Of a stretch of 30,574 nt of DNA, positions 3,760-22,640 are shown in pieces; position 1 is the first letter of the stretch; each line of letters starts with the position of its first letter. The position numbers and the translations under genes are program-made. The DNA is from Waddliaceae bacterium. GTDB taxonomy: Bacteria > Chlamydiota > Chlamydiia > Chlamydiales > GCA-2709385. Where the stretch lies: the NCBI GenBank assembly GCA_002709385.1, contig PAQS01000007.1, positions 1 to 30,574 of the forward strand, in the 5' to 3' direction. The notes under the pieces were generated by a model. The model worked only from the letters and a program-made list of their open reading frames with translations, did no database searches and was not told where the DNA came from.

Positions 3760-3943
3760 CTATTTTTTTACTTCGCATATCGAATAGATACGCAACATAT
3801 ACTTCTCATTTAATGAGAAAACCAGACTTAGGTGTATTCCAAGCCAGCAATATGCAGGTATTTTCAAGCGCTGAGTTTTACTAGTGAAAACACTAGGATC
3901 CTATTTATAGATTACGTTATACTTGACGCAATCGAGATTTTTT
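3760..3943 (+). other. 23S-5S internal transcribed spacer with hairpins
   Basis: This 184-bp spacer between 23S and 5S has no gene. Two clear hairpins are visible: TTCTCAT (3803-3809) with ATGAGAA (3813-3819), and CTAGTG (3881-3886) with CACTAG (3891-3896) around an AAAA loop. They are probably precursor-processing structures. No promoter for a separate 5S transcript is convincing. Confidence 0.7.
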
Positions 3944-4060
3944 TCTTGGTGATTATGGAGAAGGGGGTACACCTAAACCCATTCCGAACTTAGAAGTTAA
4001 GCCCTTCATCGCCGATGGTACTGCATTCAAGAGTGTGGAAGAGTAGGTCGTCGCCAAGTT
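3944..4060 (+). rRNA. rrf: 5S ribosomal RNA
   Basis: The segment begins CTTGGTGATTATGGAG and ends GTCGTCGCCAAG, so its two ends pair to form helix I of 5S rRNA. The interior contains the conserved loop region CCCATTCCGAACTTAGAAGTTAAGC (about 3979-4003) and GGTACTGC (about 4017-4024). Length is about 117 nt, normal for the molecule. It sits in the standard 16S-23S-5S order and is followed directly by a strong terminator. Ends are approximate to a few bases. Confidence 0.95.
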
Positions 4061-4068
4061 TTTCTTTC

Positions 4069-4104
4069 GCTCCTAGTAGGAAACTACTAGGAGCCTTTTT
4101 TTTT
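4069..4104 (+). terminator. Intrinsic terminator of the rRNA operon
   Basis: A perfect 11-bp stem, GCTCCTAGTAG (4069-4079) and CTACTAGGAGC (4084-4094), is closed by a GAAA tetraloop and followed by CTTTTTTTTT (4095-4104). This is a textbook rho-independent terminator for plus-strand transcription. Read on the minus strand the hairpin also forms but is followed by GAAAGAAAAAC, not a U tract, so it should stop the rRNA operon much better than the convergent giant gene, whose stop codon is 26 bp away. Confidence 0.93.
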
Positions 4105-4130
4105 ACCACAATCTTAAACTTCCTAAAATT

Positions 4131-7100
4131 TCAGAACGGTAATCCTAAACTTCTTAAAACTTCATGAGATCTTTTACCATATATAAGATCAATTTGAGTT
4201 CTTATGGTTTTTTTTACTGTTTCATTTTGTTCATCAAAAAAAGACTTGAAAACATCTTGATTTCTGTAGTCTATTTGTTGTTCATAGTATCCAAGAAGAA
4301 TCTTTGCTACGACCGAGTCTGAATAGAATTGACTTTCTGCTGAAAACTCATCACCCTGAGTTCTTATAGGTATCATTGTATTTGAAAAAGAGCTTTGTCT
4401 ATGATGAACGATATAGCTACTTGCGCTAAATTGAGTGCTTTTTATTTGACTGCTATCGCTAAATTCTAGTTGTAAATCAGCAACAGATCCCAATAGGCTT
4501 AAATTTCCTTGTGTTTTAAGAGAATCTAAATAAGTTGATTGAAAAGACTTTTCTACACGGTCATGACGTTCTAGCATGGCAAGTGGCACAGCAATAAATA
4601 GAGGTTTCGGATTTTTTGCTTCATAAGAGTTGTCAGGTTTCAAGACTATAATAGCACAATCTACTTGTGCAAATTTACTTCGTTCAGATTTTGAAGCATT
4701 TTTACATTTTTTATAAGCTTGAAAAGTAGCTTGTAGATTTTTATGAATAATCAATTTACCAGGAATAATTTCTTTAAAATGTTTGCTGATTCGAGTTTTA
4801 CAGTCATTTTTATCTTGATCGATTTTTGTCTTCAACTCATTTATTTTATCAACATAGTTAAGTTCTTTTAGTAATTCTTCTCTATCTTCAGAGTTTTTAT
4901 TTGGATTAATTATATCAAGTAGATTCCCATTTTTATTTGAATTAATTATATCAAGTAGATTTCCGTTTTTATCTAGATTAATTATATCAAATAGATTTCC
5001 ATTTTTATTTAGATTATTTGTACCAAATAAATTTCCAAGGTTTCCTGCAATTTGTTCAATATTTTTTATAAAAGAGTCGTCTTTTCCAGGCCCTTCATCG
5101 AGTTTTATCTCTCCTGATTGATAGCGCATGAGATCTTCTAGACCAATTTCATTCCATTCAATAGGCTCTGGCTCTTTTAAGTTTATTTCTCCGTCGATAT
5201 CAACCGCTGATACCTTACTAAGAATTTCTGTTTCTGTTGTTGTTTGTATTTGTACTTGAGATTCTACTACAGCTTGAACTTCTGTTTGTGCTTGTGCCTG
5301 TGCTTGTGCTTGAGCTGTTGAATTACTTCCCTGTACTGCAGGTATTGTTTCCTGTACAGCGTGTTTCATTTCTTTATCAAACTTGTTTGTTTCTGTTTCA
5401 TCGCTATATAGTTTGGCAAGATTTTCTAGATTATTTGCTGCTTTTTTTAAAGGTTCCATAACAAGATTCCAAATTTTTTCATCTTCTAATTCAGCAAGGT
5501 TTTCACTATTTGGTGAATCTTTATTAATTACAAAATCTGTATCAATTAAAAGAGCTTCTGTTTTTTGTATAATGTCTCTTAATTGATTTATCTGAGATTC
5601 GCAGAACTTTTTCATTGCTATTTTTGTTTTTTCCTCTCCCTCTATGTGAAGAGCAGCTATTAAATCCTTATTCTGGTTTTGTGTGCTGATACTATTCAGA
5701 CATGCTATATTGTAGAATTTTTTCCGAAGATCTTTTAAACGTTTTTGAGTAATTTGGCTGTTAGTATCGTAAGTAGATAATGAAACTCTAACTTCCATTC
5801 CAGCTTGTTTGATTTGTGCCGATATTTGCTGTTGTAATGCTTGTGTATATAGAGACTTATTTTCTGTATCTGTTATTTTATGTTGGAAACGATAGAGATC
5901 TCCGTATGTTTTTATATCTTTCAAGTCATCTACATCAGATTTTGCAATTGAAATACTATGTCCTAAAAGAAGCTTTCTCATGCGATACAAGGCTTGATCT
6001 CTATCAGGACTTGTTACTTTTGATGAGAGAGCAATTAGAGCATGTTTGTCAATTTGATTTTTAAGAGTGGGTTGATCAAATCCTCTCGTATCTTGGGTCC
6101 AATATAGATAAAAAAGACTATCCATTTCTTCTTTGTTCAGAAGATCATCTAATTTTTTTCTTCCAAGTTCGAAAATTTCTCCATTTTTACAATAACAACG
6201 CTTTTGGTCTTTTGCTCTACGAAATGCAATCACTCGATTGCTATCTCGTGAAAGGTTTTTTACAATGTCTTCTGAAGGGGTTTTATCGCAAATACCAGCT
6301 TGGTTTATGAAGACACTATATTTGTAAGACTTATCTGGCCATTTACTTTTTATTTGTTGAGTAAGCCACATTTCTTGCTTTGTTGATTCACTAGGGTATG
6401 ACTCAAGTTCTCTACTAGAAGCTAATCCTGGAGATTGATCTCTAGGAGATTTTGCCCAGAGTGTACTGATGATGGCTTCAGCAGTAACTTTTTGTCCTTT
6501 TTCTTTAAAGTTTTCCATACCTTCTTCTGATATGATTGGTGCTGAACAAATACTTCCTGTCCCTGTCAATCCAATGAGTCCATCAAAACCACTTAATGCT
6601 TCTTGTACTCCACACTCCACAAAGTGATCAGTTGTTTTTAGTTCTCCGGTAATCATCGCATGCTCAGCAAACGCTAAGCGTGCTCGAATTTTCCATAATT
6701 CGTTTCCTTTTATTTCTTCTGAAACTTTTTTTCCTCCTTCTAAAAAATGGTGTAAGGTTTCAGCCCAGGCATAAAGGGAAGGATTACCATTTTTTTCTAA
6801 GCTTTTTTCGTAGTGAAAGCGTGTTAGAACATTATTGATTACAGTAGTAGCATGTCGATCAATAAAAGTATCTTTTTGAGGTTTATAAGCGGCAACCAGA
6901 AAAGTTGCTAAAGAATGCATGATCGTATTGTTGTATTTTGTATTCTCACTTACATTACCGGCTACAGCAGGTACAGCTTCACATCCATTTGTGACCGACC
7001 AATTAACAGATACGCCTATTTTTTGTTTAGTTGCAGTTTCTAATACTCCACCATTTATATTGACAATTCGACGTAAAGCTCCAATTTCTGGGTGAGACTC

Positions 7101-10100
7101 TAGCTGATCACCAAGAATCGAATGTACTTTTTTATTCATAGCCCAATCGATAAAGATTTCTTGAGCTTCATTTAAGTTCACTTTTTCCAAAGAATCTTCG
7201 GAAAGTAATAACTGAATTCCCCATGAAGAGTAAGAGCGTAATTGCTTGGAAATTTCTTTGTAGTCTAAATCTTTAAATTGACTAATCGCTTCTTTGCTGT
7301 CTCCATCAATCAATTGTTGAATATAAGAATCAAGACTTAAGAATTTTTGCTTCTCATTAATGCAACGTGTTTTATAAGTTTCATACCCCTCTCTAGCGTT
7401 ATTTTTTACTTGGGTATATAAATTATGATTTCCTCTTATGTACATATAAGGTGAAAAGTTGTTTAAGTAAGTCTTCTTGCTGGTTTCGTAACTTTTGCAC
7501 ATATTTTCGAAAAAAGAATTGTTTTGAGGGGGAATAGAATCAAGAGAAGATTTAATATCATTGGTATTGTCATTCAAAACCAAATAAGCAAATTCTTTTA
7601 GTGAAATAGAAGATTTCTTTTCCTTTACTTTTTGTGTTTTATATTTTTCATAAAAAGGCGTCAATAAGTCGATTAAATGGCTTTGGAATTCTTCATTTCC
7701 TTCAAAATATTGAATTAGAGAAAAATTTTCGTTTTCAGGAGAGAGCCATTCTAAATTACTTATTTCTTTTTGAGAAATCTTTCCTATTTCTTTTTGTAGA
7801 GAAAGAGCTAGTTGAATTTCTTTTAAAAGCTCTGGGCTATAGTCTAGCCATTTTTTTAAGAGTTGTTGGCAAGCAAGATCCATTTCTGCTTCATCTAAAA
7901 GAGTTTCTCTTTGAAGAAGACGCTTTCTCAATTCATTTAGTTTTCCGTATCCTTTCTTTTCATCTCCATCTTCAGTGTTAAAGATCATTTCTACTACTTG
8001 TTTACTTGTCTCAATTACCAAGGGAGAAATAGTACAGCTGGTTAGTTCTGTACTTGCTTTATGGTTAGCTCTTGTTGCTTCATCCATTTCATCGATAATT
8101 AGTCTTGTATTGGGGTTTTTGATTAGACGATGAATTTTTTGCAGAATTTCTAGAGCATCTGAGTATATTTTCATTTTGTTTTTGTCAGAACGATCAATAT
8201 CTTCGATTTTTTCTGGACTATGCAAAATGAAATCAATTTCGTTGATAGCATTTTGTATAAATGCAAATGATTCAGGAGTTGTAAGGATATAATCTGTATT
8301 TATTTTTGCTTTTAGTAGCGAAAAGTATGTTGTTTCCAGTTTAAGTAATAATTCATCGTTACAGTTATCCAGATTAGGGATGTTGTCTCTTTTAAAGATA
8401 AATGGACAAGCACCCATTTCCCATAAGAGTTTTGTAGCAGGATCCATGTCATCATAATTTGTAATAAAGAGCTGTTCCGGTACCATACCAACAGAGAAAT
8501 AGCCTAAATCAGACATAATCGCTAAAGCAGTAGGTACAATGGTACTTGTTTTTCCTAAGCCCATGCGCATTTCAATTAGAAGGCTTGGGTTTTTAATGAG
8601 TTCAGCGATGGCACTTAGTTGTTCATCAGTATAACAATAGCCTAATCTTTGTTGAGCGAATTGAATTTTTTCCATATGAGGAGTGAGCTGAGGATCTTCA
8701 GGCTTTCCAATACTTTGGTCTAATTCTATCAATCTATCTTTTAAATCGCGGTCAGCATATTGCAAATTACTTTTAATATTGACTGATTTGATTTTCCATT
8801 GATCTTCTAATACTTTGATTTTTTGCTGAACTGAATCACTTTCATTTTGGGTTTCTGCTTGTACTGTTAATTTATGAAGAGTTTTTTTAATTTCATTGAG
8901 TGAATCGAGATCTGAAAGTGCATAGCTTTTTTGTTTTATGCGGACTTGATACTCAGTGTATTTATAAACTAAGTCGTTAAAATTTTTATCACTTCTGAAA
9001 ATTCTTTTGCTTTGAAGAAGTTGAATTTGTTCTAGATAGAATTCGTTAGAAATAAGACCTTTTCTATATCTATCACGTAAAATAGAAAAGCGTTTACTTG
9101 AGTTTTCTAATTTATCTGCTATTTGAATAATTTCTTGTTCGTCTTTATTGATTCCTTTTTTTAAATCATCAATTTCCTTCTTTAAGCTATCTAAAAATTG
9201 TTTTAAATCATTTTCGGAGATACTAGGCCGACCGGGTTGTGGGTTATGAATATTGCTAAAACCACTCAAAACTTCTTTAGTAAAAGCTGTTTCATTACCA
9301 TCCTTATCATAAGGAAGAACTCCAGTTTCTTGCTCACACAACTGTGCACGTAATAGCTGGAATTTTAGATTGGAATGGATTTCAATGCACTCCATCCAAA
9401 GCTTTTCTAATTCGAAAGGATTTTTAACTGCTTGAAGTATCTTTTCTTGATTTAGAGCATTTTTAGCGTCTTTAAGTTCTTCTAATTGTTTTGAAAAAAT
9501 ATTTTTTGTGTTTTCGTGAGTCCCCTTTAAGCTTTCTTCTGTTTCTTCAATTAGATGAGAAATTTCATCTACAGATTGATGAATATTGTTAAAAGTGAGT
9601 AGTAAGTATTTGGCCACTTTATCATTTTTCAAAGATTCTACTAAGAAGGTTTCTTTAGGAGACCTTTGTAAAGGACTATCTATGCTAGGATTGGAGGCGA
9701 TACGCTTAATGAATTCGTTTATTTCATCAATATTTGGACGTTCTCGAGAAGCTCCAAAGTATTTACTATAAGTATCCTCAAAACTTGTAGTTGCTTGATC
9801 ATTGGGAGTACTTATGGAGTTATCATTGACTTTTATTTTTTTCTTTTGTACCTCTTCTAAGGAACGAATTTGAGCATTTAGGAGTTGATGTTGTTGTGCG
9901 ATTGATAGGCCTTTAGTTCCTCCCATTTTAGAATATAGAGGTTGTAGCTTAGCTTTATGTGGTGTAGCAATTTCTGTAAAATTAGGTAAAAAGTAAGAGC
10001 TAACTAAATCTTCAATATTGATTTTTACTGGTAGGGATTCAAGGTTCAGTCCAACAGTACTTTCTAATAAGTCTACTAATTCTGTAGCAATTTTTGGGTT

Positions 10101-13100
10101 TTCTTTAATTAAAGGAATGAGACGATTTACAAGGCCGGGGCCTGAGGCTGTTAGAGCTGCAGAATAACTATCTGCTAAATGTTCTAGAGTTCTGCTTGCT
10201 ACAGAACTAGCAACTTCAGGAACAGAGTTTATTTCTTCTTTTAACTTGATTGTAGTAGTATCGCCTCCTAAATCACCTTTATGATGATGTATGAGGTTTA
10301 AAAGATCGGAAGTGAAATTTTTAATTCGAATTCCTGTTCCTTCTATATTTTCATAAATAAAGCCCCAAATGGCAGAACAGAGATGGAAACTTTGTTTAGG
10401 TAAATAGCTTGTAAAAGAAATGAGTCTATATATAGCTGTTTCGGTTTCATTTGCTTCTTTAAGAGATTGTTGATCGAGTGTATTTATTGCTGTAACTAAT
10501 TCATTAAGTTCAGATAAGTCAGCTTGTTGATCAAATCTTTTTGCAAAAAGCCCTTTCAGAGCGTATTTAAGTTGAGATGTAAAAGGAACAGTATGAGGAT
10601 TAACTATTTCTGAAAAAATAAGTGAGATATCACTGATAGTTTGTCTTACAGTACTAAAAGTACCGAGTCTTTCAGGGAGAAAGAGTTCTAAAACTTCTTT
10701 TATTTCTTTTACTCTTATATAGAAGTTAATTGGGTGTTTTATAGCATACTTAGTAATTCTAGGGAGAATTTTTAAAGAAAAAATAGCGAGAGGTTTCAGA
10801 GTTTTTTTAAAATCATCCCAATTTGGAATTTCTTGCCTAAAGAAACCGTTAAAAAAAACTTTTGCTAAATCTGGATTACCTTCTCCCAAAGAAAAAGCAT
10901 CAACTAAGCTATCAAGTCCGCTTAAATTTAAATTTAGAGGCTTTCGTGATTGGTCAATTTTATTTAAATTTATAAGAGGAATAATAGTTTCATCTCTGAG
11001 AGAATTTAAGAAAGAATCAGTTTTTGAGATTGTTGTGTCAAGCTCTATAATTTCACCTTCTATTCTTTTAGACTTTTCTTCAGACATAGCTATTTGCTTA
11101 TCTATTAATGATTTTTCTTTTATGAATTTCTTTTTATCTTTTAAATATTCTTTTGATTGTTTTTCTATTTCCTTTATTTCTGATTGTTTTTCTTTTATGG
11201 ATTTTTGTTTTGATAATATTTTTTCTTTTATTTTGCTTTTTTGTGTTTCTTCTTCTTCTGTTAAGTTGTTATAAGGTTTTGTTTCTTTTGGTTTTTTTTC
11301 TTTTTCTAGTTTGGTTAAATCCTCTTTTAATTTTTTTATTTCAACTTCTTCTTGTTTTATTGTATTACTTGTTAAATTAATTTTATCTTCGTAATATTTT
11401 GTTGTGTATGATGGTTCATTTAAATTGTTAAGTCTTTCGTTTAACCATTTTATTTTTTCATCATTACGTATTTTTTCTACTCTTTTGTTATGACGAATTT
11501 TTCTCTTTTCTTGAGTTAGTTTATTTATTGTTCTGTATTCTTCTGTTAGATTTCTAATTGTTTTTTTTGTTTCTTTTTTAAAATTATGATTTTCTTGTAA
11601 AGAGTATCCACTTTCTTGTAATATCTTGAATTCATTTAAAAAAGATTTAGCGTTTTGAAAATGACTCATTATTTGTTCGTATTTTTTATTGCCTTTAGGT
11701 ATCGCTACAACAAAATCATCTTCTCTAGTTTTTGTACTGTCATAACTTAAACTTGTTAAAAAATCCTCTATTTTTGTTTTTATATTATCTCCATCGTAGT
11801 CATTAACAGTTTGGTTTAATTCTTTGTTTAATATTGAATTCTCGTTTTTAAAATTAGAGTCGATGTAACTTTTAAAATAATTAGTTATTTTATCATTGTT
11901 TTGATTTTCTATTAAACAATCTAGTATTAGTCTTAGATGAATTGTTTTTGTTTTTTCTCCTTCAATTTGCGAATGAATGTAAGTTTCCCAGTAATGGGTA
12001 ATAGAAGGATCCGAATCGTTCTCTATAGATTTTTTTAAGTTTTCTACAGCTAATTTAATATGAGCGACTTTTATCTGTTCATCTGAACGGAAAATAGGGA
12101 GAGTTACAAATTCGCAGCTAATTTTTTCTACTGATGTTTCAATATTACTTATAGACTCACTGATAGTATTTTCGAGAACTTCTGTTTGCTTCATTGACAT
12201 TGCTTTACTAGCGCCCTGAGCAATACTCCTAAGAGGGCTAGATAAGTCAGAATCTACCAGATCTGTAGCCATTTTTGTGATATCTAGTTTTGATGCAGCA
12301 ATCTGCAAACCACCTTCTCCAATTTCCATCATCTCTTCTCTAAGTGTTTCAAGGTCTTCCCATGAATTTTTCAATGTTTCTAAAATGATTTCTTCTTTTG
12401 GAGGAAGAGAGAAGTTTTCTGATAAAGAGATTATTTCTGTTTTTTGCTGCTCTATTATTTTATATAAATCGCGAGCGTTTGAAAGTAATTTATTAATTTT
12501 TTCATTTAACTCTGTAGTGTTTTCATCTGTTTTCGGTAAAAATGATAAGTTTATTGAATGAGAGCTACTGATTATTTTATTGAAATCTGTTTCTAAAATT
12601 TTTATTATTTCGCTTTTTATTTTCTCTGATTTCTCTTTTAATGTTGTTATTGTTTCGATTATTTCAATAATAGGTAGGCTACTTGCTATATCAAAAAGTT
12701 TTTCTGTTCCGATAGTGCTTAAAAAAATTGTAATATCTGAAGATATTTCCGAAGAGCTGTAAATTATTTTAAGTAAATCTTCTTTTAAGTCTCCATCACA
12801 ATTATCTCCTTCTATAAGATCGATTACTTTTCTAATATTCTTAATGTGTATATTTATATTTATGTTTTCTTCTTTTGTTTTTTCTTGTAAGGTTGATAGT
12901 GTAGTTTCTATTGTTTTTAGCTCTTCTAATAAAGTTTTTGAGTGCTCTTTTATTATAATATTGCTTATTCCTGTTTTTAAATTACTGAAAAGTTCTTCTG
13001 AGTTATTTTTTAAATTATCGAAAACTTCTTCTGAATTATTTTTTAAGTTCTCTAAAAATGATTCAGAATTATTTTTTTCGTTTTTAAAATCTGATTTATT

Positions 13101-16100
13101 TTTACTTTTTAAGTCTGTGTTTTCTATGAATGTTTTTATTTCGTCATTTATGCATTCAATGTTTTTAAGTGAATCGCCTATATAGTTTGAATGCTTTGAT
13201 AGTTCTTTTAATGAGGTTTTTAAGTCTTCGTTTGCTGTGGTAAAAATGTCGTTTTTAAACATTTTTACTAGTTTTTTGTTTAATAATTTATTTGTTCCTA
13301 ACTCTAGTTTTTTATCTGCAATAGATTTTATATTTATATCTTTTATGTTTTTAGGATCGATAATATTTTTTATTGTTTCTTCTTCCAATAAACCCTTTAG
13401 CTCTTCAGGAGATAAATTAGGGTTTTGGAGCTGCTCTATGACTTTTCCTATATTATTTTTTATGTTCTCTATGACATTTAGAAATTTTTTAACATCTGGA
13501 TCTTCTCCTAGTTCCTCACAAACTTCTTCTGCCAAAAGTTTAAAATCAGCAATTTTTTTATGTATTTTTAGGACTTTAGGTAGGAGATGTATCTGTGTAG
13601 CTGTTACAGCATCATTATCTAAACTATTCTTTATTTCATTGTAGCTAGCAAACGATAGAAGTGTTTGTCGAGCCATTTTCTCTAATTCTTCGTAAGTTTT
13701 TTTAGATTTTTCTCCACTGTAAAGCGATGTAGTGGCTTCTTGGTATAGAGCTGGTAAATCTATTGGGCGTAAATGACCTTTATTGATTTCCTCCATATAG
13801 AACCAAAAGTTTCTTAGTAGCTCATCAAGAGATAAGGCATGTACACGGCCTTTTAACGAAGGAGTTCCCTTTTTACGGATTGTTTCGGGACTTTCAGAAA
13901 CCATAAATAAGGAAGCAAGTAATGGTATGGGAATACTATCAATAGTAGGAATGCTTTGTTCTTGTGCGTAACCTGTATGTAATGCCATTTGTGAAAAAAT
14001 ATTACTTTTTACTCCTTGAGCCCAAGAGGCTAAAATATCTTTTCCGTTTGGGAAAATTTCTTTTAAATTACTTTCATTTTCTTCTGTGAGTTGTTGGTAC
14101 CAATGAAATTCTTGTCCGATTTTATATTGATATTCAGCGAAAGCTTTTTGAGATTTTTGGCTGCTAGAGAAATCATTGTTACTCCGAATATTATTTAAAA
14201 TAAGGCTTTGGTTTAGGCGTATTTCAAGAGAGTCTATATGGGGAATTGCTCTTCCTGTAGCAAGGCTATAGTCTTCAATGAGCGTGCTTACATGTTCGAT
14301 CAGTTGCGGGTCTTTTGAACTGTTACTTTTTTGGGCTTCATCGATTTCTCTTTTAGCAAGAGCAAAAAATCTGTTTTTTGCGGAAGCAGAGCTAGAGCTC
14401 TCAGCTAAAGCGAGAAAATATTGAGAAAGATAAAGGTGTGCTTCTTGTGAGCCTTTATATTGAGATCCAGATACCTTTAATTCTAAAATAGGTGGTGCCT
14501 TTGTTTGGTCAACTTGGATCTTACCGCTTTCTTGATTAGCGGATATGGGATAAGCCATGACAAGTAGGGTGTTATGTTTAGAATTTTCATCTTTTAGAGG
14601 AAGCATGACTTGTCTATATTTAGGCCCAAGTCTTTCTCTATAGAGGAAGTCATTTGTAAGATCTAAGTAACCTTTAAGCAAGGCTTCATCATTTTCATGC
14701 TTTAAAACTTGCCAGTTTTTATCTTCTTTACTAAGGCTCCATTTTTTAGGTTCAATGATGATAGAAGATAGTTTTTCTGTTTTAGGGTCACAAAGCAATT
14801 GGCAATTGTTTAGGTTTAAAGAAGAAAATTCGGAGAGGTTTTTACTGGCATTGGGGTCAGCAAGAGCCTGGTTTTCGTTAAGTCTAATTTGTGTAATATT
14901 TCCTTTTTTCATTTCTATTTTGTAAATAGAAGAAGGAGATGGGGTACTGTTGACTTCTGAAAAAAGGTTGATTATTCCATCGCTTGTCTCCCAGAGACCA
15001 CGAGAGTCAATAAGTTGATCGATTATAGAAGGGGGATTCTTTTCACCTTCTACTACAGTGGGGTTTGTATCTATAAGAGTCCAAGTTTTAGAGATATCGT
15101 CAGGGGTCTTTCCTTTAAGAGTTCTTTTTATTTTCATTGACTCAATAGCTCCTGAATCACTTTGTGTATATGTGATCTCGAAGTCTTGCCCTAAGTGATC
15201 TTCTATTTTTATGATATGTAAGTTATTTTCTGTATGTGAAATGTAACCTTGTTTAGGGATGATTGTCTGATCTTCTCCGAATGCTTGTTTGAATTTTTCG
15301 TGTCTGAGAATTGAAGAAGAGATTCCTTGTAATTGCTTATTTTGATTTTCTTCTCCATAGGGTTGGTTTAGGTCTAGACAGTGAGAGAGATTCGCTGTTC
15401 GCGCTGTCTCTTCAGGTTTTTGATCTAATGGGTTTTTAGCTTTGAGTTGATATTGATACCCCCCAGAGAAAGGATCAGTAATCCATTTACATTCAAAATC
15501 ACAATTTACATTTCTAGTTTGAAAATCTTTGATTTTTTTTTCTAAATCTTCGAATTTTTCTGGATAAGAAAGTTTATATAAATCATTTAATATTTCTTGA
15601 AGCTCTTCACCTAAAGGAGGAGTATCTATGATAGGATTTAGTACTGTTTCCTGAATCCAGTTTTGTATTTCTTCTTCTAAACATTTAGATACTATTGGAG
15701 TAGAGGATCGAAGAAGAACTTTGTGGGTTAACAATAAAAAAGTTCTAGATTCTTTTGGTAATTGGTAATTAGGGTTTTTTATTTTTTCTCTTATATATTC
15801 TTCCTTGATTAAAATAGAAGCGCTTATTGCATAGCGTTTAATTTCTGTAAAATCACGTTGGTCATATTTATTAGAGTAAGGAATAAAGTTGGAAAGAGTA
15901 TTAACATTTATAATATTTTTTATCTTTTTTCTGTTACATATCTTTTTTAAAACGGAAATTTGTTCTTTTAAAATTTCTTCATCACTATTCGTGTCAATTG
16001 AATGAGATGATCGAGAGAAGATATCCGTACGTTCTTCTGGGTTTTTATGAAGAGCAAATGCTTGATTGGCCGGAAGTCCTCCTCCAGAAAGTAAATAACT

Positions 16101-19100
16101 ATGTATTCCATGGGATTGAAGGTCTTTGAGTACCCATTGGATACTTTCATCCAATTGGGTTCTTAGGGAACGTAAAAAGCTAATTTTACTTAGTTGTTGT
16201 AGGTTATAAGAAGCTCTCTCAGGATTTTCAGGATTCCTGCTTTGTTTTTTGAGAATGTCGTCTTGAAGGAGCTGTTCAAGTTTTTCCTCACTTAATGCAA
16301 TACATTCATCTAAAAGTTCTATCCAAGGAGCCAGAGCTTTTGGGTCTTCTACCAATAAAGATTTTACAAGGTCTGATGCTGATAAAGTCCATTCTATACG
16401 ATTTCTAACACCGCAATAATCTAATTCATCAGGATGTTGGATAATGTATTGTAGAGCTTTAATCACTGATAAAGGACTATAGCGTGCTTCTGTTGAGTCT
16501 TTAGTATTTGCTTGTTGTAAAATAACGTAAGCTTGTTCACGCAAGTGAAATTCCGGAGGTAGTTCGCTTTCTGTTTTATCATTCACAAGATCACGCAAAA
16601 GTTCTACTCGGTTTTTAGAAGAGGAGTACGAGTTACTTTCTTCATTTTCCGCTCTCATGATACTTGTAGTCGTGATGGGTTGTGTTTTATATGAACTAAA
16701 AGAGTCAGGCGGATTTCCAAAAAAAACTTGGGCAAAGGGCTGAGGTTTGCCGTGAACTTTGTAAGTAATACATATACCAGCTCCACATGATCCTTTTGAA
16801 TTTGTGCAATAATTTTCTAATTTTAAGTTCTGAAGTGTGTTTAAAGAAATATCACTGTATTTATTAAACAATTCATAGTTTTCTTGAATAAAATTATTAA
16901 CAGGTTTGTATTGAGCATTCGTAAATTCGCTTTCTGTTGTAATGGGTGCAAATACAGTATGTGGGTAACGGAGAATGTGCAAACGTACTTGGGAATAAGT
17001 GAAGTGATCAAATAGAGAAGAATTTTTAGAGTTATCGCCGAGTACTGCTTTGAGTTTTAAAAAGCTCTGGTCTATCCCACCATTACAAACTAAGCTCTGA
17101 CGTGTTTCTTGAGATAAATTTTTTAAAGAATTGTTGATGTATGTTTTGATTTTTTCTTTTAGGGCAGGATCTTTTATATTCTCAAGGCTTGTAGAACGGG
17201 CTATAGGGTTAGCAAATTCGTCTTTTAGATTAGGATCCCAGTATGATGAAGGAAGAGTATGTATTTGTTGAGGAGAAGAGAGAGGATTTAGTAGAAGCTC
17301 TTTTTCAATAAAGAGATTAAGAGCAAAAATTGTATCAGATGCATAAGGACTTCTTGCAAGAGTTGATTTGAGGTCTTTTTGTAAGAAATCTTTCATAGAT
17401 TTAAGATCTGGGCAAAAACGATCATAAGCTAAATCAGAAAGATTTAGATTTTTTTCTTTTAAATTTTCATGAATGATTTTTGTTTGATTTACTTCTTTAG
17501 CAAGTTCTTCGTAGTCCTCGTGTTCAAGTTGACTCCATTGGATTGCGATTGTATCCTCTTCCAAGGAAGCTTTTCCTTTATCTATTAAGAGTTTTAAAAA
17601 AAATGAATCTGGACTTAATGTATTTTCAATAGTTTTTTTTACTTCTTCTGACTTTCTGCGAAGAAGGGTATAAGAGATCGCTTGGCATTTATAAAGCTGC
17701 AACATTTGTTCTGAGCTAACTTTTCCTCCAAAGTTCTGCATAATTAATGACCATACTGAAGATTCAATTGTCATCATGTTCTGAATACATTCATCAAGAT
17801 CTTTTATGGGTAATTCGTTCCAAAGATCTATAGAATCTGTGGCACTCAGATGTTGCATAGGAGCAGGTAAAGCGTTTATAAATTTTTGAAAATCACGATA
17901 AATTCTTTTCGCTTTAAGTAGCTTCTGTGGATTAAGAGAAGAAGGGAGGTAGGATAAGTTTTCACTCACCCCACTAATTGATTGAGCAAAGTTAGGCAAA
18001 TTTTCCATAAAAATTTCATGGAATTTTATTTCTAAGTTTAATAATTCTTCTTTTTCAGTATTTGCTTGTTTTATTGATTTTTTTTCAGTAGTGTCTGAGG
18101 TTTTTAATGTGTTTTCTTTATTTTTAATGAAATTTTTTATGTTTTTTATTCGATTAATTCGTTTCTTTTCAAGTTGAAAGAATTTTTTTTTAAAAATTTC
18201 TTGGGAGTGAAGATCATGCTCAAGGTGAATATAAGTGATCAGTTCTTGTAAAGCATGTTTGAGAAAATCTTTGTCTTTTTCGTTAATATTTTCATAGTTT
18301 TTATATAAACTAGTCGTATCACTGTATAATTTATATAAATTATACTTTTCTAAGGTTTTTGTTTTAATATTTTTATTTATTGAATCTATAAATTTATTAT
18401 AATTTTCTTCCCCGAAATCTATGTTATTTAAGTAGGTGTTTTCTATTTTTAATGTATTATTTTTGCAGTATGTTTCTATTTCTTTTTTGATTATCGATAA
18501 TTTATTAATTGATTTAGATAGGTTGTTTATTAATATGTTTCTTAATTCGATTTCAGATTTATAGTTTTTTATTTTATTTTTTATGTCTATGTTTTCATAT
18601 TCTAGTTTTCCTATTAACGAAGGGTCTTTTGTTTTGTTTTTTGAATCTTTTATCTTTTTTATTTCTGTTTTTTTGTTATTTTTTTTTGTAATTAAATCAT
18701 CTATTTTAGATTGAATTTCATTTGATTCGTTTTTTAAAGTTTCTATTTCTTTTTTTAATTCCGATTCTAATTGGAGTTTTTTTGAATTAATTTGGTCGTA
18801 ATTAAATATATATTTTATTGATCCGTTACTTTTTTTGTTATTTATTTCTTTTTTCCATGTTTCTATATCTGTCTTTTTTGATTCTGATGAATTTACTTTA
18901 TCTTTGAATATTTTATTGTTCTGTTCTTTTATATTTTCACTAAAATGATCTAGTCTATTTTTAATATATTCTTCGAATATTGTAAGCCTTATTAAGGATT
19001 TGATATCTTTTTTTTCTTCAATTATTTCTATAGGAACTTTTGTTTCATATTCTGATAAATTGAGTTTTTCTTCTTTTAAATAGTCAATTTGTTCTCTTGT

Positions 19101-22100
19101 TTGATTTTTTAATTTTTCCATGACGTTGAAGTCTTTTGATAATACAGATAGTTTCATTTTTTCTTCTTCTATCTCTAAAATCGTCTTGTCATTATTTCTT
19201 TTAGTTTCAATAAAAACATTTATACATTTTTCATTTTCTGTATCTCCTTTTATATGGTCAGTTATTTCTTTAAAATCAGCTGTTAATTTTTCTTTTTGAT
19301 TTTCTCGTGTTTTTTCTAATTCCTTTAGTTTTTTTCTTGTTTCTTTTATTTTTTCGTATAATGTTTCAGTTTCATTAAAAATATAACTATACTCTTTGTT
19401 TCTTGTTTTTAAAATTTCATCTATTTCAGTTACTTTGCTTGTTATTTCATCTATTAATTTTTTTGATCTATTTTCAATCTCTTCATAAGTTTTTTTATCT
19501 GTAATTTCTTCGTCAATTTTTTCATTAACTTCTATACCACCTAATGTCGCTAAAAAATCTTTAAAGAAAACTCTTTTTTCTCTTTTGTGCTCTAAACAAA
19601 GTTTAATATCTTCTTTTTGCTCTTGTATATTTTTTAATTCTTCATGTGTAGTTTCTTCTATTTCATCTATTGATTCGTTTATTTCTTCTAACTCAGAGGG
19701 ATTAATCTCTAAGGGCAAGTATTGATAGAGTTCAGATATTTCTGAGGGTAGAATTCTTCTCAAATTTATTAATGGTTGAAGAATTTCTATGATGTTTTTG
19801 TCATTTGAATTTATTCCTGAGTGAGGAGGAGATGATGCCAAGCGAATGAGGTCGACAATTTTTCTTTGTATTTCACTTTTGGAGATTAGAGGAGAGCTTG
19901 GAGATTTATCAGAGTTTAATTTTTGATCAAGATCTTTAATGGCTTTTTCATATTTATTTATTTCATCCAAATGTGTCTGTGAGACCTTCAATTTTTTATT
20001 TTCTGTAATTTTTTTTAAAAAATCTAGTCTCTCTTGTATTATATCACGCATTTCATGAAAGTGGGGTTTATGCATTTTTTTTGCAGCCAAAAGATCATAG
20101 CTAGATAAGTGGAGAGATTGAGGAGATAAAATAGCATCGCATAGCCAAGTAATGATTTGTTCTTCTTCAGGAAGAGAAAATATATCTTCTTGCCCTATTT
20201 GATCTCTTAAAGAAAGAGCTTTTTTTGATAGAGATTCTTTTATGGTTTCTTTAAGAGCATCTCGTAGCTTATTAGCTTCGCTAAGTTGATCTTCAAAAGA
20301 TGTTGCTTCTTCATATTTATTGAGTATCTCTATGAGCTTTGGAGAATCATTTTCTAGTTTTTCTCTAGCTTCTTTTTTTAGATGTGTTTGAATAGCTGTT
20401 TTTAATGAAAAGGCGTTAGATATTTTTCGACTATTTTTCTGTAGTTCTGTGTGGTGTGTTGCATAATCCTTTGTAGCATCATCAATATTTTTGTCAGGTT
20501 CCAAATCTAAAGCGTTTTTTAAAGCCTGTAAAATAAATGTATTGATCTTTTCCGAATTTATTCTTTCTTTTTTTTCTAGTTGTTCACGGAGTTCATTTAA
20601 AAACTTTTTGTCTGCTGGATAAAGTTCATTAAATGCTTTCTGGTTATTGCCTGCTATCCATTGGCTGGTACGCACTTGAATTGTTGTTAGTTTTGTTTGA
20701 ATAAAAGAATCTATTTCTTCTTCGAAATTAACATTTCTGATGCTATCTGATATATTTTTTTTGTCTAAATCGCTTTTTTCTCGAAAAAAAGTATCTGTAT
20801 CGACAGCTCTTTTTTTGTTTATTTTTTTTACAATACTTCGGTTGATACAATGAGTATCGAATGGCTGTTGTAGAGCTTTTTCTAACTTTTCTTCTTCTTT
20901 TTTGCTTTTTTGATTTCTTAAATTCTTGATTCGTGTTCCGAGAACTTTTTTCAATAAAGGAATATTAGGCGAGATACTGTCCTGTTTATTATTACGATTA
21001 AGGTCTTCTAAGTCAGATATAAGAGTTAGAGCATGTTGATAATCTTTTAGAGAAGGGGCCCATTTTTTTAATACAGTTTTGCAGTAGTCTTCTACAAAAT
21101 GGTTCATCATTTGAGTTCGGTTTTCAGAGCTCAAATCATTAATAGCATTTTGCTCATCAATTGACAGTTCTTGTAAGAGTAAATCATTCATCCAAGAGAC
21201 CATGTAATGCTCTTTAGAGGTATCTTTAAGTTCTGTTTTTATAGAAGCTTCTTCTAAATGGCTTCGTTTGAATCCTTGGGCAATTAAGCTAAGACCTAAA
21301 AGTTGAGCAGGGCTTACTTTGAATGTATTTTTGTTCGTCGTTTTTGAAGAGTTGTTTTCTGGGGAACTGATACCGACTAAGCTCAATAAATCGTTTTTTT
21401 GTAATCCATCTATTAATTCTTTGGCTTGAGATGGTAAAAAAGAAGTTAATTGGTTTACTTTTTCTTTGAGAGTATCAAAAGCGAGATCTCCAGTATTTTC
21501 ATTGTTACCTAGGCTTTGTAGTAGATTAGAAACAGCCTTTGCCTTATCGAGAGATGTTGGGTTTCTAAGATGATGTTGTAAGCGAGAAATATTGTTTTTT
21601 TCAGGACCTGTGCTAAGGAGCAAGAGCATTGTATTGAGTGTAAAGTTTATGGGGGCTTTAACATTTTTTTTTCTATGTTCTTGATATGCTGCTTCAGCAT
21701 CGGCGATTGTTTCAAAATTTTGAAAACGCTCTTCATCCTTTTCTGTTAATTCTTGTAAGATAAATTCTTGATAAGTAAGGTTTTGTGCGCCAGAAGAGTG
21801 TTGATCATAGTTGTAAAGACGCACTCGGATTTCATTATTTTTAAGCTTTGTGAATTCCATAAAAATGGGGACAAATCGCTTTCCTTGATAGTATCCTAAT
21901 GGGACTTCAACGTGTTGTCCTTCATCTAAATTGATGATTTCTTCTGTTAACTCGTTCGATAAGTCTTTAAATTTTTCTTCTTGTATTTTGAAAGGGCTGT
22001 CGAGTATGCCAAAAATTTTCTTTCCATTGATGACGCTATTTTCTACTTTCATTCGAGCAACGTTGTCAGCGGACTTTTGAGTACTTAGGTATTTTTGACC

Positions 22101-22640
22101 ACGATGAATCGATTCTATGTGATCTTTATAGAGAGCTTTTTTTCCTATACTTTGTTTGCTTTTTTTACTTCTCCACAAAAGGTTTTTTCCGAAAATACTG
22201 TGAGATAGCAAAAATGTCTGAAATTTCCTAAGCAAGCTTCCATTGTCAATTTTCTCTCCCCATGATGTTTGTATAAGAGTTTTTGCAGGTATAGTGCCAT
22301 TTTGTTCATGATCAACTGCATTGGAAGAGCGACTTTCTATTTTTTTAGGAATGGTTACTTTTATTCTTTGATTATTTATCTGACAAAATACTTCAATATC
22401 ATTTTCGCCTTTATTATTTGTTGTTATGATTTCGATTTTTTGATTACGGTTTTTTGTAAGAGCATTTAATGTGTCCTTTACTGACAACAATGAATTTAAA
22501 TAATGTTGTGGACTTAAGTTACTTTTTTCTAAAATATTACGCGCTTGTCTTCGTGCTGATAGATCTATGTTATAAGTATTTCCATCGTTGACAAATTGAA
22601 AAGTTCCAATATTTCTATTTGAATCAGAATGAATAACCAT
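4131..22640 (-). CDS. Giant 6169-aa SF2 helicase/SecA-like ATPase, DUF3638-type, with coiled-coil blocks
   Basis: One uninterrupted frame encodes about 6169 residues (~700 kDa). The C-terminal third holds an ordered ATPase motif set: Walker A MGLGKTST (K4697), DEAD-like DEMDE (4850-4854), GLTGTG (about 5357-5362), TRGFDQ (5518-5523) and QALYRMRKLLLG (5549-5560). As I recall them, DUF3638 proteins of eukaryotes carry GEGK, GFSGT, TRGTD and QAxMRMRKLGKG in the same order, and SecA has GEGKT and GMTGT, so I infer a motor of that group. Residues ~980-1530 and ~3000-3900 contain long Lys/Glu/Ile/Asn-rich coiled coils. Short tandem repeats lie at ~3190-3222 and ~5869-5916, and a Gln/Ala-rich stretch at ~5770-5800. 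No signal peptide or clear membrane segment is seen. The ATG at 22640 has no good Shine-Dalgarno; an ATG-TAA pair precedes it directly. Substrate and location are unknown. The frame is certain, the family likely. Confidence 0.9.
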   Translation of the reverse strand: MVIHSDSNRNIGTFQFVNDGNTYNIDLSARRQARNILEKSNLSPQHYLNSLLSVKDTLNALTKNRNQKIEIITTNNKGENDIEVFCQINNQRIKVTIPKKIESRSSNAVDHEQNGTIPAKTLIQTSWGEKIDNGSLLRKFQTFLLSHSIFGKNLLWRSKKSKQSIGKKALYKDHIESIHRGQKYLSTQKSADNVARMKVENSVINGKKIFGILDSPFKIQEEKFKDLSNELTEEIINLDEGQHVEVPLGYYQGKRFVPIFMEFTKLKNNEIRVRLYNYDQHSSGAQNLTYQEFILQELTEKDEERFQNFETIADAEAAYQEHRKKNVKAPINFTLNTMLLLLSTGPEKNNISRLQHHLRNPTSLDKAKAVSNLLQSLGNNENTGDLAFDTLKEKVNQLTSFLPSQAKELIDGLQKNDLLSLVGISSPENNSSKTTNKNTFKVSPAQLLGLSLIAQGFKRSHLEEASIKTELKDTSKEHYMVSWMNDLLLQELSIDEQNAINDLSSENRTQMMNHFVEDYCKTVLKKWAPSLKDYQHALTLISDLEDLNRNNKQDSISPNIPLLKKVLGTRIKNLRNQKSKKEEEKLEKALQQPFDTHCINRSIVKKINKKRAVDTDTFFREKSDLDKKNISDSIRNVNFEEEIDSFIQTKLTTIQVRTSQWIAGNNQKAFNELYPADKKFLNELREQLEKKERINSEKINTFILQALKNALDLEPDKNIDDATKDYATHHTELQKNSRKISNAFSLKTAIQTHLKKEAREKLENDSPKLIEILNKYEEATSFEDQLSEANKLRDALKETIKESLSKKALSLRDQIGQEDIFSLPEEEQIITWLCDAILSPQSLHLSSYDLLAAKKMHKPHFHEMRDIIQERLDFLKKITENKKLKVSQTHLDEINKYEKAIKDLDQKLNSDKSPSSPLISKSEIQRKIVDLIRLASSPPHSGINSNDKNIIEILQPLINLRRILPSEISELYQYLPLEINPSELEEINESIDEIEETTHEELKNIQEQKEDIKLCLEHKREKRVFFKDFLATLGGIEVNEKIDEEITDKKTYEEIENRSKKLIDEITSKVTEIDEILKTRNKEYSYIFNETETLYEKIKETRKKLKELEKTRENQKEKLTADFKEITDHIKGDTENEKCINVFIETKRNNDKTILEIEEEKMKLSVLSKDFNVMEKLKNQTREQIDYLKEEKLNLSEYETKVPIEIIEEKKDIKSLIRLTIFEEYIKNRLDHFSENIKEQNNKIFKDKVNSSESKKTDIETWKKEINNKKSNGSIKYIFNYDQINSKKLQLESELKKEIETLKNESNEIQSKIDDLITKKNNKKTEIKKIKDSKNKTKDPSLIGKLEYENIDIKNKIKNYKSEIELRNILINNLSKSINKLSIIKKEIETYCKNNTLKIENTYLNNIDFGEENYNKFIDSINKNIKTKTLEKYNLYKLYSDTTSLYKNYENINEKDKDFLKHALQELITYIHLEHDLHSQEIFKKKFFQLEKKRINRIKNIKNFIKNKENTLKTSDTTEKKSIKQANTEKEELLNLEIKFHEIFMENLPNFAQSISGVSENLSYLPSSLNPQKLLKAKRIYRDFQKFINALPAPMQHLSATDSIDLWNELPIKDLDECIQNMMTIESSVWSLIMQNFGGKVSSEQMLQLYKCQAISYTLLRRKSEEVKKTIENTLSPDSFFLKLLIDKGKASLEEDTIAIQWSQLEHEDYEELAKEVNQTKIIHENLKEKNLNLSDLAYDRFCPDLKSMKDFLQKDLKSTLARSPYASDTIFALNLFIEKELLLNPLSSPQQIHTLPSSYWDPNLKDEFANPIARSTSLENIKDPALKEKIKTYINNSLKNLSQETRQSLVCNGGIDQSFLKLKAVLGDNSKNSSLFDHFTYSQVRLHILRYPHTVFAPITTESEFTNAQYKPVNNFIQENYELFNKYSDISLNTLQNLKLENYCTNSKGSCGAGICITYKVHGKPQPFAQVFFGNPPDSFSSYKTQPITTTSIMRAENEESNSYSSSKNRVELLRDLVNDKTESELPPEFHLREQAYVILQQANTKDSTEARYSPLSVIKALQYIIQHPDELDYCGVRNRIEWTLSASDLVKSLLVEDPKALAPWIELLDECIALSEEKLEQLLQDDILKKQSRNPENPERASYNLQQLSKISFLRSLRTQLDESIQWVLKDLQSHGIHSYLLSGGGLPANQAFALHKNPEERTDIFSRSSHSIDTNSDEEILKEQISVLKKICNRKKIKNIINVNTLSNFIPYSNKYDQRDFTEIKRYAISASILIKEEYIREKIKNPNYQLPKESRTFLLLTHKVLLRSSTPIVSKCLEEEIQNWIQETVLNPIIDTPPLGEELQEILNDLYKLSYPEKFEDLEKKIKDFQTRNVNCDFECKWITDPFSGGYQYQLKAKNPLDQKPEETARTANLSHCLDLNQPYGEENQNKQLQGISSSILRHEKFKQAFGEDQTIIPKQGYISHTENNLHIIKIEDHLGQDFEITYTQSDSGAIESMKIKRTLKGKTPDDISKTWTLIDTNPTVVEGEKNPPSIIDQLIDSRGLWETSDGIINLFSEVNSTPSPSSIYKIEMKKGNITQIRLNENQALADPNASKNLSEFSSLNLNNCQLLCDPKTEKLSSIIIEPKKWSLSKEDKNWQVLKHENDEALLKGYLDLTNDFLYRERLGPKYRQVMLPLKDENSKHNTLLVMAYPISANQESGKIQVDQTKAPPILELKVSGSQYKGSQEAHLYLSQYFLALAESSSSASAKNRFFALAKREIDEAQKSNSSKDPQLIEHVSTLIEDYSLATGRAIPHIDSLEIRLNQSLILNNIRSNNDFSSSQKSQKAFAEYQYKIGQEFHWYQQLTEENESNLKEIFPNGKDILASWAQGVKSNIFSQMALHTGYAQEQSIPTIDSIPIPLLASLFMVSESPETIRKKGTPSLKGRVHALSLDELLRNFWFYMEEINKGHLRPIDLPALYQEATTSLYSGEKSKKTYEELEKMARQTLLSFASYNEIKNSLDNDAVTATQIHLLPKVLKIHKKIADFKLLAEEVCEELGEDPDVKKFLNVIENIKNNIGKVIEQLQNPNLSPEELKGLLEEETIKNIIDPKNIKDINIKSIADKKLELGTNKLLNKKLVKMFKNDIFTTANEDLKTSLKELSKHSNYIGDSLKNIECINDEIKTFIENTDLKSKNKSDFKNEKNNSESFLENLKNNSEEVFDNLKNNSEELFSNLKTGISNIIIKEHSKTLLEELKTIETTLSTLQEKTKEENININIHIKNIRKVIDLIEGDNCDGDLKEDLLKIIYSSSEISSDITIFLSTIGTEKLFDIASSLPIIEIIETITTLKEKSEKIKSEIIKILETDFNKIISSSHSINLSFLPKTDENTTELNEKINKLLSNARDLYKIIEQQKTEIISLSENFSLPPKEEIILETLKNSWEDLETLREEMMEIGEGGLQIAASKLDITKMATDLVDSDLSSPLRSIAQGASKAMSMKQTEVLENTISESISNIETSVEKISCEFVTLPIFRSDEQIKVAHIKLAVENLKKSIENDSDPSITHYWETYIHSQIEGEKTKTIHLRLILDCLIENQNNDKITNYFKSYIDSNFKNENSILNKELNQTVNDYDGDNIKTKIEDFLTSLSYDSTKTREDDFVVAIPKGNKKYEQIMSHFQNAKSFLNEFKILQESGYSLQENHNFKKETKKTIRNLTEEYRTINKLTQEKRKIRHNKRVEKIRNDEKIKWLNERLNNLNEPSYTTKYYEDKINLTSNTIKQEEVEIKKLKEDLTKLEKEKKPKETKPYNNLTEEEETQKSKIKEKILSKQKSIKEKQSEIKEIEKQSKEYLKDKKKFIKEKSLIDKQIAMSEEKSKRIEGEIIELDTTISKTDSFLNSLRDETIIPLINLNKIDQSRKPLNLNLSGLDSLVDAFSLGEGNPDLAKVFFNGFFRQEIPNWDDFKKTLKPLAIFSLKILPRITKYAIKHPINFYIRVKEIKEVLELFLPERLGTFSTVRQTISDISLIFSEIVNPHTVPFTSQLKYALKGLFAKRFDQQADLSELNELVTAINTLDQQSLKEANETETAIYRLISFTSYLPKQSFHLCSAIWGFIYENIEGTGIRIKNFTSDLLNLIHHHKGDLGGDTTTIKLKEEINSVPEVASSVASRTLEHLADSYSAALTASGPGLVNRLIPLIKENPKIATELVDLLESTVGLNLESLPVKINIEDLVSSYFLPNFTEIATPHKAKLQPLYSKMGGTKGLSIAQQHQLLNAQIRSLEEVQKKKIKVNDNSISTPNDQATTSFEDTYSKYFGASRERPNIDEINEFIKRIASNPSIDSPLQRSPKETFLVESLKNDKVAKYLLLTFNNIHQSVDEISHLIEETEESLKGTHENTKNIFSKQLEELKDAKNALNQEKILQAVKNPFELEKLWMECIEIHSNLKFQLLRAQLCEQETGVLPYDKDGNETAFTKEVLSGFSNIHNPQPGRPSISENDLKQFLDSLKKEIDDLKKGINKDEQEIIQIADKLENSSKRFSILRDRYRKGLISNEFYLEQIQLLQSKRIFRSDKNFNDLVYKYTEYQVRIKQKSYALSDLDSLNEIKKTLHKLTVQAETQNESDSVQQKIKVLEDQWKIKSVNIKSNLQYADRDLKDRLIELDQSIGKPEDPQLTPHMEKIQFAQQRLGYCYTDEQLSAIAELIKNPSLLIEMRMGLGKTSTIVPTALAIMSDLGYFSVGMVPEQLFITNYDDMDPATKLLWEMGACPFIFKRDNIPNLDNCNDELLLKLETTYFSLLKAKINTDYILTTPESFAFIQNAINEIDFILHSPEKIEDIDRSDKNKMKIYSDALEILQKIHRLIKNPNTRLIIDEMDEATRANHKASTELTSCTISPLVIETSKQVVEMIFNTEDGDEKKGYGKLNELRKRLLQRETLLDEAEMDLACQQLLKKWLDYSPELLKEIQLALSLQKEIGKISQKEISNLEWLSPENENFSLIQYFEGNEEFQSHLIDLLTPFYEKYKTQKVKEKKSSISLKEFAYLVLNDNTNDIKSSLDSIPPQNNSFFENMCKSYETSKKTYLNNFSPYMYIRGNHNLYTQVKNNAREGYETYKTRCINEKQKFLSLDSYIQQLIDGDSKEAISQFKDLDYKEISKQLRSYSSWGIQLLLSEDSLEKVNLNEAQEIFIDWAMNKKVHSILGDQLESHPEIGALRRIVNINGGVLETATKQKIGVSVNWSVTNGCEAVPAVAGNVSENTKYNNTIMHSLATFLVAAYKPQKDTFIDRHATTVINNVLTRFHYEKSLEKNGNPSLYAWAETLHHFLEGGKKVSEEIKGNELWKIRARLAFAEHAMITGELKTTDHFVECGVQEALSGFDGLIGLTGTGSICSAPIISEEGMENFKEKGQKVTAEAIISTLWAKSPRDQSPGLASSRELESYPSESTKQEMWLTQQIKSKWPDKSYKYSVFINQAGICDKTPSEDIVKNLSRDSNRVIAFRRAKDQKRCYCKNGEIFELGRKKLDDLLNKEEMDSLFYLYWTQDTRGFDQPTLKNQIDKHALIALSSKVTSPDRDQALYRMRKLLLGHSISIAKSDVDDLKDIKTYGDLYRFQHKITDTENKSLYTQALQQQISAQIKQAGMEVRVSLSTYDTNSQITQKRLKDLRKKFYNIACLNSISTQNQNKDLIAALHIEGEEKTKIAMKKFCESQINQLRDIIQKTEALLIDTDFVINKDSPNSENLAELEDEKIWNLVMEPLKKAANNLENLAKLYSDETETNKFDKEMKHAVQETIPAVQGSNSTAQAQAQAQAQTEVQAVVESQVQIQTTTETEILSKVSAVDIDGEINLKEPEPIEWNEIGLEDLMRYQSGEIKLDEGPGKDDSFIKNIEQIAGNLGNLFGTNNLNKNGNLFDIINLDKNGNLLDIINSNKNGNLLDIINPNKNSEDREELLKELNYVDKINELKTKIDQDKNDCKTRISKHFKEIIPGKLIIHKNLQATFQAYKKCKNASKSERSKFAQVDCAIIVLKPDNSYEAKNPKPLFIAVPLAMLERHDRVEKSFQSTYLDSLKTQGNLSLLGSVADLQLEFSDSSQIKSTQFSASSYIVHHRQSSFSNTMIPIRTQGDEFSAESQFYSDSVVAKILLGYYEQQIDYRNQDVFKSFFDEQNETVKKTIRTQIDLIYGKRSHEVLRSLGLPF
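4894..5037 (-). repeat. Four 36-bp tandem repeats inside the giant gene
   Basis: Four consecutive 36-bp units occupy 4894-4929, 4930-4965, 4966-5001 and 5002-5037. They encode repeats of 12 residues with consensus GNLLDIINxNKN (residues about 5869-5916). Units 1-3 differ at only a few bases and unit 4 is more diverged. The repeat lies in a linker C-terminal to the helicase-like core. Repeat length is a multiple of three, so copy-number change keeps the frame. Confidence 0.9.
12976..13074 (-). repeat. Three 33-bp tandem repeats inside the giant gene
   Basis: Units at 12976-13008, 13009-13041 and 13042-13074 encode the 11-residue motif NNSEExFxNLK (residues about 3190-3222). They lie inside the second AT-rich coiled-coil block. 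Eleven residues is three helical turns, so the units could simply extend a coiled coil. Confidence 0.85.

What the first reader, a model, noticed from the sequence alone, without database searches (positions are those of the whole stretch)
4131..22640. Single 18.5-kb gene encoding a ~6170-residue protein
The frame is open without one stop over 18,510 bp even though large parts are extremely AT-rich, where stops should be frequent; this means strong selection to keep it intact. A ~700-kDa product costs a reduced-genome bacterium a great deal. Such size in bacteria usually goes with non-ribosomal synthetases, adhesins or giant toxins, and none of those signatures is present. It is instead a helicase-like motor attached to long coiled coils.
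Basis: partly seen in the sequence, partly recalled or inferred. Interest (0 to 1): 0.8.

Follow-up and report, generated by a model that had tools for sequence, protein, structure and literature searches.

The report
Giant motor protein in chlamydial gene family
The 18.5-kb gene is real and encodes a 6,169-residue protein with an ATP-driven helicase-type motor; it is the largest of fifteen related giant genes in one chlamydial genome, from a little-studied family found in bacteria that live inside protists and in eukaryotes, many members of which also carry a domain with the fold of known host-manipulating Legionella proteins.

Summary
An uninterrupted 6,169-codon frame lies at 4131-22640, on the minus strand. 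Chance is excluded (log10 P about -225), and the protein aligns collinearly with single-frame 3,957-4,736-residue proteins in three other places. It is not a lone oddity. The same 3.15-Mb chlamydial genome holds 15 such giants (2,463-6,169 aa; at least 162 kb, 5.2% of the genome), and 94 of 232 Chlamydiota genomes have members above Pfam's cut-off. Shared anatomy: an N-terminal region, a helical middle domain, a DUF3638/DUF3645-type SF2 motor with intact motifs, and a positionally conserved alternating Glu/Gln tract. Many relatives, though not this copy, carry an N-terminal domain whose predicted fold matches the cysteine-protease-like domain of Legionella effectors LegA15 and AnkH, with the His and Cys conserved. 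Relatives outside Chlamydiota are mainly gammaproteobacteria (Legionellales) and verrucomicrobia (Puniceicoccales); the Pfam domain is known from eukaryotes. Best reading: a host-directed giant ATPase effector/scaffold whose protease-like module has decayed and whose length comes from lysine/glutamate-rich insertions. Host delivery is inferred, not shown. I found no description of the chlamydial family in the held literature.

The parts
4131..22640 (-). giant gene, 6,169 aa; divergent DUF3638-superfamily protein (subfamily A with the 4,736-aa paralogue on contig C4)
20817..22286 (-). N-terminal region, residues 119-608, shared with the paralogue
   Evidence: blastp 24-25% identity, E 6e-24
21771..21998 (-). 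residues 215-290: possible remnant of the AnkH/LegA15-type cysteine-protease-like domain, catalytic His and Cys absent
   Evidence: hhalign 41% probability over 63 columns only: weak
17841..19643 (-). K/E/N/I-rich, very AT-rich region, residues about 1000-1600 (possible coils)
13791..16493 (-). conserved middle domain, residues about 2050-2950, shared with the other subfamilies tested
   Evidence: hhalign E 3e-32 to subfamily B, E 7e-10 to protease-domain-bearing members
9321..13505 (-). residues 3046-4440: expanded region (1,394 aa against about 514 in the paralogue), K/E-rich in parts
12974..13077 (-). in-frame tandem repeat, 33 bp x 3.2
5841..8723 (-). SF2 helicase-like motor, residues about 4640-5600
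8544..8567 (-). Walker A RMGLGKTS (residues 4692-4699)
   Evidence: core residues invariant in A4
8079..8102 (-). Walker B LIIDEMDE (residues 4847-4854)
   Evidence: DE invariant in A4
6555..6572 (-). motif III-like GLTGTG (residues 5357-5362)
6069..6092 (-). motif V-like DTRGFDQP (residues 5517-5524)
   Evidence: G and D nearly invariant
5976..5996 (-). motif VI-like QALYRMR (residues 5549-5555)
   Evidence: Q, R, R invariant in A4
5217..5315 (-). alternating Q/E tract (residues about 5776-5808, ..QAQAQTEVQAVVESQVQIQ..), family hallmark after motif VI
4894..5037 (-). in-frame tandem repeat, 36 bp x 4

Best explanation
SHOWN: an intact giant gene of a bacterial family of roughly 3,000-6,000-residue proteins, built as N-terminal region, helical middle domain, SF2-type ATPase motor and E/Q tract. 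The motor motifs are intact here; the N-terminal protease-like domain that many relatives carry is absent or decayed. The extra length lies in K/E/N/I-rich insertions between conserved domains. INFERRED: the family are host-directed proteins of bacteria living inside protists. Intact members would pair an AnkH/LegA15-type cysteine-protease-like (or GTPase-like) module with an ATP-driven motor that engages or remodels a host nucleic acid or polypeptide. The window protein would be a version that has kept the motor and the scaffold but not the N-terminal catalytic site. The expansion to 15 divergent copies fits adaptation to varied host targets.
For: Fifteen giants in one genome; members above cut-off in 94 of 232 Chlamydiota genomes. 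The scan of 84,980 species returned 65 loci: 42 Chlamydiota, 13 Legionellales and other gammaproteobacteria, 8 verrucomicrobia (6 Puniceicoccales), 2 from one unassigned bin. N-terminal domain model of a relative (pLDDT 91.7) matches LegA15 (Z 17.7) and AnkH (Z 16.0), next unrelated row Z 8; His invariant and Cys over 90% in 27 rows; AnkH homologues are reported with closely similar His and Cys motifs and the triad is needed for AnkH function (PMC6712400). Ankyrin repeats fused in some relatives. Motor motifs invariant including the window. Collinear homologues, shared middle domain. A DUF3638-bearing large gene family is among those enriched in secretion or membrane signals in microsporidia (PMC5423893).
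Against: No secretion signal or host localisation was testable. Proteins of 350-700 kDa would be far larger than type III substrates I know of. The window copy lacks the protease-like His and Cys. A nucleic-acid-related role inside the bacterium is not excluded. LegA15 itself is reported to be a GTPase, so the protease label of the fold is uncertain (PMC9757750). The family is absent above cut-off from the genomes read here as Chlamydiaceae, so it is not a general chlamydial need.
Confidence: 0.5

Rival explanations
1. An intracellular bacterial machine: a giant SF2 ATPase acting on the bacterium's own nucleic acids or ribonucleoprotein, with host-association of the family incidental to chlamydial ancestry and lateral transfer.
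For: The motor is SF2-type with ResIII/DEAD-like similarity; no transmembrane segment or signal-peptide-like stretch in the window protein; size is a problem for secretion.
Against: Patchy, lineage-specific copy number (0 to at least 15) and absence from the genomes read as Chlamydiaceae are unlike a housekeeping machine; protease-like and ankyrin modules of known effector type in relatives.
Confidence: 0.27
2. A conflict or defence protein against phage or rival microbes, as many giant helicase-containing bacterial proteins are.
For: Large, multi-copy, fast-diverging ATPases with partner catalytic domains are common in defence systems (general knowledge, not tested).
Against: No PADLOC hit in the window or in an intact relative; no viral homologue found; phyletic pattern follows host association.
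Confidence: 0.1
3. A decaying paralogue: the window gene is a relaxed, insertion-bloated copy with little function, open only because the decay is recent.
For: Protease-like catalytic residues absent; large AT-rich low-complexity insertions and tandem repeats; long branch.
Against: The frame is open over 18.5 kb at 31% GC while only about 35% identical to its nearest relative, so it has stayed open for a long time; all motor motifs intact; codon-position GC structure kept.
Confidence: 0.1

Closest known systems
Eukaryotic and fungal DUF3638/DUF3645 proteins (Pfam PF12340, PF12359), function unknown
   Same: Bacterial giants match PF12340 (up to 119 bits) and weakly PF12359 just downstream.
   Different: The window copy scores only 18 bits (cut-off 31). 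Whether eukaryotic members have the protease-like domain, the middle domain or the E/Q tract could not be compared here.
Legionella effectors LegA15/AnkD and AnkH/LegA3 (ankyrin plus cysteine-protease-like domain)
   Same: Predicted fold of the relatives' N-terminal domain (Z 16-17.7) and order and motifs of His and Cys.
   Different: No sequence-level match in the PDB search; the window copy lacks the residues; the crystallised chains are 431-460 residues long and have no SF2 motor.
SecA and other SF2 ATPases (DEAD-box, DinG, RIG-I)
   Same: Two-RecA motor with Walker A, DExD, TGT and a large insertion between Walker B and TGT, as in SecA; best structural Z is SecA (17.3).
   Different: DEAD-box, DinG and RIG-I are close behind (Z 14-16); no SecA Pfam family among those matched by the 35 cores; profile comparison does not single out SecA.

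Membership tests
DUF3638 superfamily (PF12340) | score above Pfam's curated cut-off | tested here: not met
   Window 18 bits against 31; 13 other giants of the genome are above it. Hence described as a divergent relative by homology, not as a PF12340 member by its cut-off.
DUF3638 superfamily (PF12340) | sequence homology to members that are above the cut-off | tested here: met
   Window against C4 paralogue E about 1e-62, against C21 and C35 members E 6e-13 and 7e-10; those three score 31-45 bits on PF12340.
DUF3638 superfamily (PF12340) | conserved SF2 motifs A, B, III, V, VI | tested here: met
DUF3638 superfamily (PF12340) | shared middle domain upstream of the motor (bacterial giants) | tested here: met
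   hhalign E 3e-32 and 7e-10
AnkH/LegA15-type cysteine-protease-like domain | fold (in relatives of the window protein) | tested here: met
   L096 model, Z 17.7 to 7kj6 and 16.0 to 6mca
AnkH/LegA15-type cysteine-protease-like domain | His and Cys of the triad present in the window protein | tested here: not met
   No GHA or QxSGTC motif; the weakly aligned stretch has no His at the catalytic place; so the window protein is not filed as a member.
SecA | SecA_DEAD domain match | tested here: not met
   not among the families matched by the window core, nor among the 25 families shown for the 35 cores
SecA | closest SF2 family by structure or profile | tested here: inconclusive
NRPS/PKS, adhesins, large toxins | their Pfam or NCBIfam domains | tested here: not met
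   none in any segment
Known anti-phage defence proteins (PADLOC) | PADLOC model match | tested here: not met
Type III secreted effector | secretion signal and delivery into the host | not testable with these tools
   Two FHIPEP (SctV/FlhA-type) genes exist in the genome, which shows only that export machinery is present.

The most novel reading that the evidence does not exclude
A new class of host-directed machine shared by protist-infecting bacteria: an SF2 motor that feeds or remodels host substrates for an AnkH-type catalytic domain on the same giant chain, acquired from or given to eukaryotes as DUF3638 proteins, with the window protein as a motor-only, scaffold-expanded variant.
Probability: 0.15. 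Interest if true: 0.85.

Novelty: new variant of a known kind. Interest (0 to 1): 0.62.

Why it matters
About 5% of a chlamydial genome goes into one family of giant motor proteins that I could not find described for chlamydiae. The family links environmental chlamydiae, Legionellales, Puniceicoccales and the eukaryotic DUF3638 proteins of unknown function, and joins an effector-type domain to an ATPase motor. It gives testable targets for how protist-dwelling bacteria handle their hosts, and bacterial handles on an uncharacterised eukaryotic domain family.

Tried and rejected
Plus-strand reading: stops throughout. Viral origin: no relative in viral contigs with the motif scanned. Defence system: no PADLOC hit. 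SecA membership: structural top hit but not distinguished from other SF2 families by profile. Weak DUF3638 hits in the genomes read as Chlamydiaceae: sub-cut-off, in 1,087-1,145-aa ORFs, taken as another SF2 protein (Mfd-sized), not giants. Sequence-level link of the N-terminal domain to LegA15/AnkH by PDB search: none; the link is by fold and motif only. Protease-like domain in the window copy: not detected by the family HMM; profile alignment weak. Literature: DUF3638, giant-protein and chlamydial searches found no description of the family in chlamydiae; only open-licence papers are held.

Full report
Observation. The frame is real: minus strand, ATG at 22640 to stop at 4131, 6,169 aa. At the ORF's composition a stop is expected in 8% of codons, giving log10 P about -225 for an open run of this length; the other five frames carry 273-677 stops. 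The window is a whole contig (C7) of a 3.15-Mb assembly, 97% complete. It carries the end of the 16S and the 23S and 5S rRNA genes at 1-4059, a TPR gene, an ankyrin gene, a Hc1/Hc2-type histone gene and, by my reading of the translations, an RNA methyltransferase and Tgt. Hc1 is a chlamydial histone-like protein, so the source is a member of Chlamydiota.

Not a single gene. Searches of the same genome found 14 further giant ORFs of 2,463-4,739 aa carrying the same motor, in at least five sequence groups. My sum of the 15 frames is 54,169 codons, 162.5 kb, 5.2% of the genome; one is cut by a contig end, so this is a minimum. In the phylum 110 of 232 genomes match PF12340 at E<=0.001 and 94 are above the curated cut-off. 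The weak matches in the genomes I take for Chlamydiaceae are in 1,087-1,145-aa ORFs and are not giants. The window groups with its C4 paralogue (support 100) inside a clade of ten with the RMGLGK[TS] Walker A (support 100); 4,637- and 3,957-aa proteins of two other families align collinearly.

Anatomy. From N to C: region 119-608 shared with the paralogue; a K/E/N/I-rich stretch; a middle domain (about 2050-2950) that profile comparison finds in the other subfamilies too (E 3e-32, 7e-10); an expanded region 3046-4440; the motor (about 4640-5600) with Walker A RMGLGKTS, LIIDEMDE, GLTGTG, DTRGFDQP and QALYRMR; an alternating Q/E tract; a tail. The extra length over the paralogue (about 1,430 aa) lies mainly in 3046-4440 and in an insertion inside the motor (4896-5159). 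Heptad periodicity is only modestly enriched, so 'long coiled coils' is plausible for parts, not shown.

Motor. Invariant residues in a 35-row alignment (Walker A GxGK, DE, Q..R.R of motif VI) include the window. All 35 cores match DUF3638, 14 DUF3645, 18 ResIII and 9 DEAD at a lax E-value. The window core model is good only in the first RecA lobe. Structural rows are led by SecA (Z 17.3), but DinG, DEAD-box and RIG-I follow at Z 14-16, and profile comparison does not separate them. So: a two-RecA SF2 motor, relation inside SF2 unresolved.

N-terminal domain of relatives. About forty giants from several phyla share a domain with GHAxxYEx, YNtGxG and QxSGTC motifs; His invariant, Cys over 90% in 27 rows. 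The model of one (pLDDT 91.7) matches LegA15/AnkD (Z 17.4-17.7) and AnkH (Z 16.0), with the next unrelated row at Z 8. AnkH has a putative His-Asp-Cys triad, conserved in its homologues in the patterns rGHa, D/NRg and GNCSWANV, and required for its function though no protease activity was seen in vitro (PMC6712400). For LegA15 a later paper reports a GTPase in which C361S abolishes activity (PMC9757750). In this genome seven of fifteen giants have the domain by HMM; one of them has lost the Cys. The window and its group have at most a remnant without His or Cys. I therefore do not file the window protein as a member of that domain family.

E/Q tract. In 36 of 46 members with a located motif VI, the best alternating E/Q window of the whole protein lies 100-300 residues after motif VI, against 2.75 expected from length. 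In the window it starts about 227 residues after. Its role is unknown.

Distribution. One scan of 84,980 species returned 65 loci: by title 42 chlamydial, 13 Legionellales, Francisellaceae and other gammaproteobacteria, 8 verrucomicrobia (six Puniceicoccales), 2 from one unassigned bin. The scan used one short peptide pattern, so absence elsewhere is not proven. Gammaproteobacterial copies form one clade (support 100) beside chlamydial ones, which suggests transfer. DUF3638 is described as widespread in eukaryotes with undefined mechanism (PMC12615304) and marks a large gene family in microsporidia (PMC5423893). No viral relative was found with the pattern used.

Mechanism. I think it most likely that the family acts on the host, and that the window copy is a motor-and-scaffold member without the N-terminal catalytic site. 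Host delivery, ATPase activity and substrate are inference. The main objection is size. A role inside the bacterium is the main rival.

Literature. No paper in the held open-licence library describes this family in chlamydiae; this is weak evidence of novelty.

Noticed in passing
window 22880-23200: Intergenic element with 18-bp perfect inverted arms 202 bp apart; parts of it recur at many places in the genome (39 matches), like a MITE or similar interspersed repeat.
   Followed up: partly
window 27581-28210 (+): Histone-like gene joining an Hc1 domain (E 9e-20) to an HC2-like lysine/alanine repeat tail (E 5e-7, below Pfam's cut-off) in one 209-aa protein.
   Followed up: no
window 26136-27140 (-) and 23303-25966 (-): Ankyrin-repeat protein and an 887-aa TPR protein next to the giant gene.
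   Followed up: no
L113 3611-20503: Gammaproteobacterial relative of at least 5,631 aa, still open at the end of the stretch, with protease-like His and Cys motifs and ankyrin repeats: may rival the window gene in size.
   Followed up: partly
L124 and L132, after the motor: Puniceicoccales copies carry long pure EQEQEQ runs at the position of the family's E/Q tract.
   Followed up: partly
L018-L020, L022, L081, L082: In subfamily B and its relatives the same tract has become polyQ, QL or QH repeats.
   Followed up: no
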